From Ilex aquifolium (lineage: Eukaryota; Streptophyta; Magnoliopsida; Aquifoliales; Aquifoliaceae): a DNA stretch of 64,000 bases. The translations under genes were made by a program, and so were the position numbers. Under the pieces are notes generated by a model. It was given only the letters and a program-made list of their open reading frames with translations, did no database searches and was not told the DNA's origin. The stretch is taken from the NCBI GenBank assembly GCA_951799425.1, contig OX637402.1, positions 33,075,492 to 33,139,491 of the forward strand. Direction: 5' to 3'. This document shows positions 23,576 to 29,128 of this stretch, piece after piece (position 1 is the stretch's first letter; every line of letters starts with the position of its first letter).

Positions 23576-23799
23576 ATAGGCAGTCTGGATTGTAGGGGTA
23601 TAAGGGGACATTTTCTGTAGCATTATCTGATGAGAGAGAGAGAAAAAAAGAGGGGGGGGGGGGGGGGGGGGGGGGGGGGGGTCCATTTTGTCTCACATCC
23701 ACCTTGTTCTGAACTCTTATGATGGGTCATACGCTGTGGTTGTGGGCCGAGATCTGAGGCACCTTTCAGGGCTTTTCAATAAAACTACTAAAAAGTGCC
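23576..23799. repeat. Duplicated segment A, copy 1, with poly-G tract
   Basis: This roughly 200-bp segment (from TAGGCAGTCTGGATTG to ACTAAAAAGTGCC) is repeated at 26786-26989. Copy 1 carries a G-run of about 30 at 23652-23681 where copy 2 has GA repeats, so the run is an expansion. It is flanked by poly-T on the right. Confidence 0.85.
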
Positions 23800-23814
23800 T
23801 TTTTTTTTTTTTTT

Positions 23815-25063
23815 GTGAAAATTGGAAGTGAGTCCCTCTAGATGTACTTGTTTGGAGATGAGTCCGGTAAGGAAACTTATAAGGGGCTAAGTCCATGTTT
23901 AAAATTATATGCAATGACTTAAGTCCACTTTTTTTTTTTATCTCAAAAATACCCTTCCTTGAAAGGAAGTTAAATTAATTTCCTATTTTGGAAATTGTTA
24001 TCCCTTAATTCAAGGTCAATTAAAATATGCCAATAAAATCTCCATCATAAATTTAAAATTCAAATTCAAAGATCTCTCTCTTTCTCTCTCTCTCTCTCTC
24101 TCTCTCTCTCTCTCTCTCTCTCTCTCTCTTTATATATATATATATCAAATTCAAAGCTCTCTCTCTATATATATATATAAAATCTCCATCATAAATTTGA
24201 AATTCAAATTCAAAACTCTCTCTCTCTATATATATATATATATATCAAATTCAAAACTCTCTCTCTCCCCCTCTCTCTCTCTCTCTATATATATATATAT
24301 ATATATTTATGTTACTATTTTTTTTTATTATGTTACTGTTCATGTTACTACTTTTGTTGAGTATGTTACTGTTCATGTTCCTATTATTTTGAGCATGTTA
24401 CTGTTTTTGTTGAGCATGTTACTACTATTATTTTACTAAATATTAATATTCAATGTTACTATTTGTTTTATTTTTTAATATTACTATTTTTTGTGTTTGA
24501 ATGGTACTATTTTTTGCGTTTGAATTTGAGAGAAATAATTATTGTTAAGTATGTTACAATTTTTGTTGAACATGTTACTGTTGTTATTTTTTAAAAATAT
24601 TAATATTGAATGTTTCAATTTTTTTTATGTTTAAATGTTACTATTTTTTTGTGTTTAAATGTATTATTTTTTGTATCCAAATCATAACTTTTTTTGTATT
24701 TGAATGTTACTATTTTTTATTTTTAATGTTACTATATATATATATATATATATATATATATATATATATATATATGCACCTAACCTATATATGGATATAG
24801 ATAGATAAGAGAGAGGCAAAATTTTAATGTTAGTCAAACTCTTAACCTATATATGGATATAGATAGATATGAGAGAGAAAAGATTTTAATGTTAGTCAAA
24901 CTCCTAAGATTTAGGAGTTTTTAATTTTTAGTTTTATTTTACTTCTAAAGGGAAGGGATAGTATGGTAAAATTGACAAAAAACGGACTTCATAACAAATA
25001 AGTTTCCTTAACGGACTTAAGTCCAAACAAGTCCATATAGGGGGACCGGCCTCCAAATTTCCC
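23815..25063. mobile_element. Palindromic TIR element E, copy 1
   Basis: The element starts GTGAAAATTGGAAGTGAGTC and ends CGGCCTCCAAATTTCCC. Inverted, the end reads GGGAAATTTGGAGGCCGGTC, and both ends continue with an ACTTGTTTGGA...AAGTCCG...AAGGAAACTTAT block, so about 80 bp form diverged inverted repeats. It sits between T-runs (T15 left, T10 right), i.e. a T-rich target. Internal parts are (CT)n(TA)n blocks to about 24300, then an ATGTTACTATTTTT-rich body to 24730, then (TA)n. It contains no ORF of note. The reversed copies at 25074 and 27002 carry a Helitron that this copy lacks. The ends suggest a Mutator-like non-autonomous element. Confidence 0.7.
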
Positions 25064-25073
25064 TTTTTTTTTT

Positions 25074-26786: not shown

Positions 26787-26989
26787 ATAGGCAGTCTGGA
26801 TTGTAGGGGTATAAGGGGACATTTTCTTTAGCATTATCTGATGAGAGAGAGAGAGAGAGAGGGTCCATTTTGTCTCACATCCACCTTGTTCGTTTGTTCT
26901 GAACTCTTATGATGGGTCATACGTTGTGGTTGTGGGCCGAGATCTGAGACACCTTTCAGGGCTTTTCAATAAAACTACTGAAAAGTGCC
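26786..26989. repeat. Duplicated segment A, copy 2
   Basis: Near-identical to 23576-23799 without the poly-G run and with a small GTTCGTTT insertion. The segment is followed by a 12-T run and the next element-E copy, so A plus the truncated E forms a tandemly repeated unit of about 2 kb. Confidence 0.85.
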
Positions 26990-27001
26990 TTTTTTTTTTT
27001 T

Positions 27002-29116
27002 GGAACATTTGGAGGTCGATACACTTGTTTGAATTTGTTTGGACTTAAGTCCGTCAAATAAATTTATTTGTTATGAAGTTCATTTTTTGTCAATTTTACC
27101 ATACTATCCCTTCCATTTATAAGTGAAATAAAACTAAAAATTAAAAACCCCTAAATTTTAGGAGTTTGACTAACATTAAAATATTTTCTCTGTCATATCT
27201 ATCTATATCCATATATAGGTTAAGAGTTTGACTAACATTAAAATTTTTCCTCTCTCTTATCTATCTATATCCATATATAGGTTAGGTGTATATATATATA
27301 CTAGTTATTGTCTGTGCCTGAAGGAACATAATAATAAAAAATGGTAAATAATAAATATATATGTATTCAAATCCAAAATCAAATCACAAACATAGAGGAG
27401 AGATAAATAAATTTAAGTATCTGTTGTAGTGGGGGTGAGAAGTGGGGGTGGTAGGAGACGGTGATGGTTGTGGATGACAATAACCGTGGTGGCGGCGGCG
27501 GTGGTGGTGGTGGGGGCGATGGTGGTGGTGGCGACGACAATGGCTGTGGTGACGGCGACGTCGGCAGTGGTGGTGGTAGTGGCGACGGCGACGGTGATGG
27601 TGGTGGTGGCGGCGACAATGGTGGTGGTGGCGACGACGGCGACAATGGTGGTGATGGTGGTGGGGGAGGCGGTGGTGGTGGTGGAGGCGGTGGTGGCGGC
27701 AGTGGCGGTGGCGGTGGCAGTGGCAGTGGCGGTGGCAGTGGCGGTGGCGGTGGCGGGGGGTGGTGGTAATAGAGGTATTGGTGGGACAATTTCAATCACT
27801 ATTTTTTTTTTTAAAGTACTTATGAGAAATGATTTTTAGAAATACTTTTAAAAAGTCTCTCCAAACACATATTTAGGGGCCTATTTTTCCTATTAAATTT
27901 AGGTTGTTAATATTAGCCGTTAGATTAACTTTAAAGTAAAATTTAAAGCGATCTGAACCGCGAAAAACAAAAGTCATTTTGTTTATCTTTTAAAATTTGA
28001 ATTGTAAGCTACTTTATTATATATATATATATATATATATATATATATATATATATATATATATATATATATATATATATATATATATTAACATTAAAAA
28101 TAAAAAATAGTAACATCCAAATACAAAAAAAAATTATCATTTGGACACAAAAAATAATACATTTAAATACAAAAAAATAGTATCATTTAAACATAAAAAA
28201 AATTGAAACATTCAATATTAATATTTTTTAAAAATAACAACAGTAACATGTTCAACAAAAATAGTAACATGCTTAACAAAAACTGCAACATACTTAACAA
28301 TAATTATTTCTCTCAAATTCAAACTCAAAAAAAAGTACCATTCAAACACAAAAAATAGTAATATTCAAAAACAAAATAAATAGTAACATTGAATATTAAT
28401 ATTTAGTAAAATAATAGTAGTAACATACTCAAAAAAACAGTAACATGCTCAAAATAATAGTAACATGAACAGTAACATACTCAACAAAAGCAGTAATATG
28501 AACAGGAACATAATAAAAAAAATAGTAACATGAATTTGAATATATATATTCGGCTACCACTTTCCTCACCATAGTACTGCCACCATCGCATCATCGTCAC
28601 CTCCCGAGCAACGTCAACCATCACGTTGTCATCATCTCCACAACAACGCTCACCACGACACAAAAGCTCATTCAAGTTCTACTTCGATAGCTCATTTTTA
28701 CTTCACACCACCGCCACCACTATACTTGCATCATCTCCAAAACAACTCAGAGTATATATATATATATATATATATATATATATATATATATATATATATA
28801 TATATATATATATATATATAGAGAGAGAGAGAGAGAGAGAGAGAGAGAGAGAGAGAGAGTTTTGAATTTGAATTTTAAATTTATGATAGAGATTTTATTG
28901 GCATATTTTAATTGACTTTGAATTAAGGGATAACAATTTTCAAAATAGGAAATAAATTTAACTTCCTTTCAAGGAAGGGTATTTTTGAGATAAAAAAAAA
29001 AAGTGGACTTAAGTCATTGCATATAATTTTAAACATGGACTTAGCCTCTTATAAGTTTTTTTGTAGGACTTATCTCCAAACAAGTACATCTAGGGGGACT
29101 CATTTCCAATTTTCAC
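27002..29116 (-). mobile_element. Element E, inverted, full-length copy 3
   Basis: It runs from GGAACATTTGGAGGTCGATAC to CATTTCCAATTTTCAC, which is the inverse of the left end of copy 1, between T-runs (26990-27001 and 29117-29128). It contains the Helitron at 27301-28018, the GTAACA-rich body (to about 28550), a CCACCATCG-rich piece, and (TA)n(GA)n at 28755-28860. The last 255 bp are the reverse complement of 23815-24070. Confidence 0.75.
27301..28018 (-). mobile_element. Helitron copy (minus) inside element E copy 3
   Basis: CTAG at 27301-27304, then on the minus strand a CTTCAGGCAC hairpin half, mark the 3' end. One hairpin base is mutated relative to 25370 (GGAAC versus GGCAC). The GGTGGTGGC tract spans 27430-27770 and differs in repeat number from the 25370 copy. 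The 5' side merges into (TA)n near 28018. Confidence 0.7.
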
Positions 29117-29128
29117 TTTTTTTTTTTT

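What the first reader, a model, noticed from the sequence alone, without database searches (positions are those of the whole stretch)
23576..29128. Composite of a TIR element, Helitron, tandem duplication and inverted copy
I read it as A - element E (forward, no Helitron) - truncated E (inverted, with Helitron) - A - full E (inverted, with Helitron). The A copies, E copies and Helitron copies allow the order of events to be inferred: Helitron insertion first, then the tandem duplication, then arrival of another E in opposite orientation. The junction at about 26782-26790 is at TA microhomology.
Basis: seen in the sequence. Interest (0 to 1): 0.75.

Follow-up and report, generated by a model that had tools for sequence, protein, structure and literature searches.

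The report
Nested plant transposons with local duplication
In a plant chromosome, one Mutator-type mini-transposon carrying a Helitron was copied in tandem together with a bit of host DNA, and later a second, younger copy of the same mini-transposon landed next to it; this is ordinary transposon layering with an unusually readable order of events.

Summary
The window lies in an 800-Mb, plant-like genome. The locus reads A1 – T15 – forward E – T10 – truncated inverted E – A2 – T12 – full inverted E – T12 – host flank. A matches twice in the genome, both times here: host DNA duplicated locally. E is a high-copy non-autonomous element with imperfect inverted ends and 9-bp A/T-rich target duplications (exact in 16 of 20 end pairs tested), i.e. 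Mutator-type. H belongs to a family with canonical Helitron ends. The exact H-in-E junction pattern occurs only here, twice. A, E, B and H differ equally between the two units (38 of 1546 sites, 2.5%; homogeneity p=0.81), as one tandem duplication predicts; its junction has 5 bp of microhomology. The forward E is near the family consensus (7 of 915 sites) while the inverted copies share 24 derived changes. So: inverted E, Helitron, duplication, forward E; the last step's place rests mainly on its presence in one unit. Adjacent E–E insertion recurs (7 exact-ended sites among 922 right ends). Such clustering of Mutator-type MITEs is published. Low interest.

The parts
23574..23799 (+). A1: host sequence, first copy; contains a G30 tract
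   Evidence: 2 matches in the whole genome, both at this locus; aligned with A2, 4 of 191 non-SSR sites differ
23800..23814 (+). T15 tract, left flank of the forward E
23815..25063 (+). Forward E: non-autonomous Mutator-type element, no Helitron, no B segment, internal (CT)n/(TA)n duplication
   Evidence: ends GTGAAAATTGG...CCAAATTTCCC; 7 of 915 sites differ from family consensus
25064..25073 (+). T10 tract between forward E right end and inverted E right end
25074..26789 (-). Inverted E, unit 1, lacking its left end beyond the (TA)n
   Evidence: alignment; ends at the junction
25370..26036 (-). Helitron copy in unit 1: CTAG end at 25370-25373, hairpin TGTGCC/GGCACA; 5' TC of the family replaced by (TA)n, so the 5' limit is placed by comparison
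26569..26780 (-). Segment B of E, unit 1
   Evidence: also in other E copies
26785..26789 (+). Duplication junction, 5-bp ATATA microhomology
26785..26989 (+). A2: second copy of host sequence
26990..27001 (+). T12 tract between A2 and full inverted E, without any E insertion
27002..29116 (-). Full inverted E, unit 2, with Helitron and B
27301..28025 (-). Helitron copy in unit 2: CTAG at 27301-27304; hairpin has a mismatch; 5' limit placed by comparison
28553..28752 (-). Segment B of E, unit 2
29117..29128 (+). T12 tract on the far side of the inverted E (consistent with a target duplication within poly-T), then host DNA

Best explanation
A four-step layering of known transposon types. (1) A non-autonomous Mutator-type element E inserted in inverted orientation into a poly-T tract next to host sequence A. 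(2) A non-autonomous Helitron H inserted into the (TA)n inside that E. (3) A piece of about 1.95 kb, A plus most of the E with its H, was duplicated in tandem; the new joint lies at 5 bp of ATATA shared by the E microsatellite and the left edge of A, which fits microhomology-mediated or replication-slippage joining. (4) A young E inserted in the other orientation into the T tract between A1 and the truncated E. Shown by sequence: the pieces, ends, copy numbers, junction and shared versus private changes. Inferred: the joining mechanism, and that E is moved in trans by a Mutator-type transposase.
For: A has 2 genomic matches, both here. The exact H/E junction pattern has 2 matches genome-wide, both here, and 0 of 20 other fetched E loci show H between E parts (one of the 20, L012, showed only a right end). 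A, E, B and H differ by 4/191, 17/724, 4/204 and 13/427 sites between units, homogeneous (p=0.81), pooled 38/1546 = 2.5%, well below forward-versus-full-inverted E, 44/705 (Fisher p=2.6e-5). On 664 consensus columns of the right end and core the inverted copies share 24 derived changes, with 9 (unit 1) and 6 (unit 2) private ones; the forward E differs from consensus at 7/915 sites, left end included. Both local H copies lack the 5' TC that 20 of 30 other H 5' ends keep. Exact 9-bp TSDs in 16 of 20 E end pairs. The unit-2 T12 tract has no E.
Against: No reads or second assembly were available, so an assembly error is not formally excluded. The T tracts make the local TSDs uninformative in length. 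Forward-E load (0.8%) and duplication branch (about 1.1%) do not differ significantly (p=0.51), so step 4 after step 3 rests on presence in one unit only; a loss from unit 2 would give the same picture. H and E carry similar shared-derived loads (16/403, 15/403; 24/664), so the time between steps 1 and 2 is unresolved. The CCACC-rich part of H differs more than the rest between units (18/232) and was left out of the pooled count as repeat-rich.
Confidence: 0.88

Rival explanations
1. Assembly artefact: two diverged haplotypes (one with the forward E, one without) were joined end to end, giving a false tandem copy.
For: 2.5% divergence between units is within what a heterozygous outcrossing plant could show (recalled, not tested); the joint lies at a microsatellite.
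Against: The window has no N; the two sides of the joint share only 5 bp, too short for an overlap join; unit 1 is cut inside E; no separate alternative-haplotype copy of A is in the assembly.
Confidence: 0.08
2. The forward E was already present before the duplication and was later lost exactly from unit 2.
For: The substitution counts alone do not exclude it (p=0.51).
Against: It needs an exact loss restoring a clean T12 tract; an extra step with no trace.
Confidence: 0.06
3. H entered an E elsewhere and the E+H composite then transposed here as one unit.
For: H and E have similar shared-derived loads.
Against: The exact H/E junction pattern is found nowhere else in the assembly. The pattern allowed no mismatches, so a diverged sister could be missed.
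Confidence: 0.1

Closest known systems
SaTar elements (non-autonomous MULEs in modular arrays; guayule, rice), PMC5907723 (abstract, outline and passages seen)
   Same: Short non-autonomous Mutator-type elements with imperfect TIRs that sit side by side without interrupting each other, joined by simple A/T-rich sequence.
   Different: Guayule SaTars are reported with 10-bp TSDs and often (TA)n linkers; E here has 9-bp TSDs and mostly non-microsatellite A/T-rich targets, and exact-ended adjacent pairs are a small fraction.
Ac-mMITEs of pineapple (Mutator-derived, clustered), PMC8449440 (passages seen)
   Same: Mutator-like MITEs, some with 9/10-bp TSDs, that form clusters by adjacent insertion.
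   Different: 46.1% of full-length copies are reported clustered there (within 100 bp), mainly in (TA)n; here 7 exact-ended adjacent sites (gaps 5-30 bp) among 922 exact right ends, counts made in different ways.
MuTAnT of Medicago, PMC4486113 (abstract and outline seen)
   Same: Mutator-like elements with a strong preference for simple A/T targets.
   Different: MuTAnT targets TA microsatellites and has a putative autonomous partner; none was sought here.
Plant Helitrons (maize), PMC2267711 (passages seen)
   Same: TC/CTAG ends, 3' hairpin, A/T insertion site, and head-to-tail neighbours.
   Different: H is short, without a coding region looked for or noticed, and CCACC-rich inside; the two local copies have lost the 5' TC.

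Membership tests
Mutator-type non-autonomous element (MULE/MITE) for E | 9- to 10-bp target site duplications | tested here: met
   20 E end pairs from the 20 fetched loci (L009 gives two, L012 none): 16 exact 9 of 9, one 8 of 9, two 7 of 9, one 5 of 9 (L011, paired by the script with an internal fragment; its outer right flank reads the same 9-mer). Not readable for the three window copies, which lie in T tracts
Mutator-type non-autonomous element (MULE/MITE) for E | Terminal inverted repeats | tested here: met
   Imperfect TIRs over about 66 bp between the two ends of the forward E
Mutator-type non-autonomous element (MULE/MITE) for E | Mobilised by a mudrA-type transposase from a partner with the same ends | not tested
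   No search for an autonomous partner was made
Helitron for H | 5' TC and 3' CTRR (CTAG) ends, inserted between A and T | tested here: met
   Met for the family: e.g. L036, L038, L044, L047 show A|TCTATATAATAAAG...ACTAG|T; TC kept at 20 of 30 5' ends. The two local copies keep CTAG|T but not TC
Helitron for H | 3' hairpin 10-15 bp before the end | tested here: met
   TGTGCC(TTTA)GGCACA followed by GACAATAACTAG in unit 1; one mismatch in unit 2
Helitron for H | Rep/helicase of an autonomous partner | not tested
   No partner search was made
SaTar-type modular array | Neighbouring elements joined through microsatellite, none interrupted | tested here: inconclusive
   Forward and inverted E are joined by T10 without interruption, but the inverted E is interrupted by H, and the gaps of the other 7 E-E sites are A/T-rich rather than clean microsatellites

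The most novel reading that the evidence does not exclude
E preferentially inserts into or overlapping the target duplication of an existing E, so that each insertion creates the next landing site at its own edge. Adjacent pairs with overlapping 9-bp targets (for example L054 and L056, read by eye, with one mismatch in some of the duplications) occur several hundred times more often than uniform chance (5 right-to-left and 2 right-to-right sites observed against 0.014 and 0.007 expected), and transposase guidance by neighbouring ends, rather than A/T preference alone, could be the cause.
Probability: 0.2. Interest if true: 0.4.

Novelty: new member of a known kind. Interest (0 to 1): 0.2.

Why it matters
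The locus is a clean worked example of how nested and adjacent transposons with one small tandem duplication can be put in time order using genome-wide relatives. It has no evident function, but it shows microsatellites and target duplications acting as repeated landing and breakage sites in a plant genome.

Tried and rejected
Considered that segment B (about 200 bp) was a further insertion tied to the Helitron: rejected, because B is present without H in other E copies (6 of 20 fetched loci: L009, L010, L016, L021, L023, L028). Considered that A is another repeat or part of a transposon: not supported, 2 matches genome-wide, both here. Considered dating the forward E by its distance to the inverted E: rejected, because that distance mostly reflects changes in the inverted copies. 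Tried to order E and H insertion by substitution load: unresolved. Left-to-left adjacent E pairs: 0 found, compatible with small numbers. One paper search returned nothing; no claim that anything is absent from print is made.

Bias and drops to note: the 20 E loci were taken from the better hits to the right end of the unit-2 inverted E, so fractions among them are not genome-wide estimates; scored hit lists are capped (42 matches listed from 1770 candidates for E, 41 from 3338 for H). Exact-pattern counts miss ends with any substitution, including the inverted E right ends of this window. Columns with less than 70% (E) or 60% (H, B) agreement, or with letters in fewer than 60% of copies, were dropped before counting. 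SSR and CCACC-rich columns were dropped for the unit-to-unit comparison. L037 and L052 overlap (the same place on C4), so one search counted it twice; one search repeats the H count without L052 and the result changes by one site. Only 8 of the 18 ORFs of at least 110 aa were scanned for domains.

Full report
What is there. The window maps to G000:C12:33075492-33139491 of an 800,232,872-base, 103-contig genome. Of 8 ORFs scanned (of 18 with at least 110 aa), one matches an auxin-responsive protein family (51250-51753) and one a putative methyltransferase (6839-8179); an auxin response factor domain match at 10298-11794 is below its cut-off. This points to a plant; the species was not identified.

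What A is. A 211-base query of A2 has 2 matches in the whole genome, both at this locus. A is therefore most simply host DNA that was duplicated here, not a mobile repeat.

What E is. The 299-base right end of E gives 42 listed matches from 1770 first-look candidates. In 20 fetched loci the element runs from GTGAAAATTGG to CCAAATTTCCC in most copies. Of 20 end pairs tested, 16 show an exact 9-bp target duplication, one matches at 8 of 9, two at 7 of 9 and one at 5 of 9; the last (L011) was paired by the script with an internal fragment, and its outer right flank does carry the same 9-mer. L012 had no left end in the fetched stretch. The two ends of the forward E are imperfect inverted repeats for about 66 bp. 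This is the Mutator type, non-autonomous. That Mutator-type elements make 9- to 10-bp duplications is established knowledge and is also stated in passages of PMC8449440 and PMC5907723.

What H is. H has 41 listed matches from 3338 candidates. Its family ends are A|TCTATATAATAAAG … TGTGCC-TTCA-GGCACA-GACAATAACTAG|T, with variation, matching the Helitron features listed in PMC2267711 (passages). TC is kept at 20 of 30 5' ends (L052 and the local copies left out); both local copies have (TA)n there instead. H copies following each other head to tail are seen elsewhere (for example L009, L011, L014, L035, L045, L046), as reported for maize in PMC2267711. Helitrons near E occur also at L043 (next to the (TA)n of an E core, other orientation; whether inside a whole E was not checked) and L019 (next to an E left end), so these A/T tracts look like repeated landing sites.

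Order of events. The exact pattern for the H/E joint occurs twice in the genome, both here, and 0 of 20 other E loci show H between E parts: H most likely entered this E. The two units differ by 4/191 (A), 17/724 (E), 4/204 (B) and 13/427 (H) sites, homogeneous at p=0.81, pooled 38/1546 = 2.5%: one duplication after H. The CCACC-rich part of H, left out of that count, differs more (18/232). The joint between unit 1 and A2 shares 5 bp, ATATA, with both parents. Against consensus columns from the other copies (22 right ends, 20 cores, 19 left ends), the inverted copies share 24 derived changes in 664 columns of right end and core and have 9 and 6 private ones, while the forward E has 5 in those parts and 2 of 248 in the left end (7/915 in all). 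The forward E thus looks youngest, and it lies in unit 1 only. Its branch is not significantly shorter than the duplication branch (p=0.51), so its place after the duplication rests mainly on that one-sided presence. H has 16 shared, 9 and 3 private changes in 403 columns, a load like that of E, so the gap between E and H insertion is unresolved. With substitution rates recalled from memory (about 2.6e-9 to 1.3e-8 per site per year), 2.5% corresponds to roughly 1 to 5 million years; this is only a scale.

Adjacent insertion. Exact right ends number 922 (456 and 466 on the two strands; backwards-read controls 1 and 4). Facing right ends 5-30 bp apart occur at 2 sites, right-to-left neighbours at 5, left-to-left at 0; 0.007 and 0.014 would be expected for the first two if ends were scattered uniformly (the number of left ends was assumed equal to that of right ends and not counted). 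In L054 and L056 the 9-bp target of one E, read by eye with up to one mismatch, overlaps the target duplication of its neighbour. If A/T preference raised the expectation 50-fold, the right-to-left excess would remain (p=7e-4) and the right-to-right one would be marginal (p=0.048). Clustering of Mutator-type MITEs by adjacent insertion is published (PMC5907723, PMC8449440), so the pair in this window is a further case of a known habit.

Verdict. The structure is ordinary transposon layering plus one microhomology-type tandem duplication, in element families not named here. The main open doubt is the assembly, which only reads can settle.

Noticed in passing
window 46624-47470: A further H-family Helitron 5' end (A|TCTATATAATAAAG at 46624) with 81% match over 208 positions and a CCACC-rich interior; its 3' end was not located.
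   Followed up: partly
window 755-785: A Helitron 3' end of the same kind (GTGCCTTCAGGCAC...AATAACTAG|T) near the left edge of the window.
   Followed up: no
window 3669-4246: A 287-bp unit in two tandem copies, 99% identical.
   Followed up: no
window 59755-60081: Two tandem copies of about 152 bp, 97% identical.
   Followed up: no
window 35012-36033 and 50343-50809: A repeat family in both orientations, 79-88% identical, with an internal 168-bp tandem repeat at 35471-35781.
   Followed up: no
L009 1332-3191: An E copy interrupted at its left end by about 1.6 kb, with about 6 bp of overlap between the two sides.
   Followed up: no
L037 1501-2258 (L052 overlaps the same place): Two H 5' ends about 515 bases apart with nearly the same ~50-base upstream flank: looks like another local tandem duplication of host DNA with part of a Helitron.
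   Followed up: no
window 23652-23681: A1 holds a pure G30 run where A2 has (GA)n; a likely trouble spot for sequencing.
   Followed up: no
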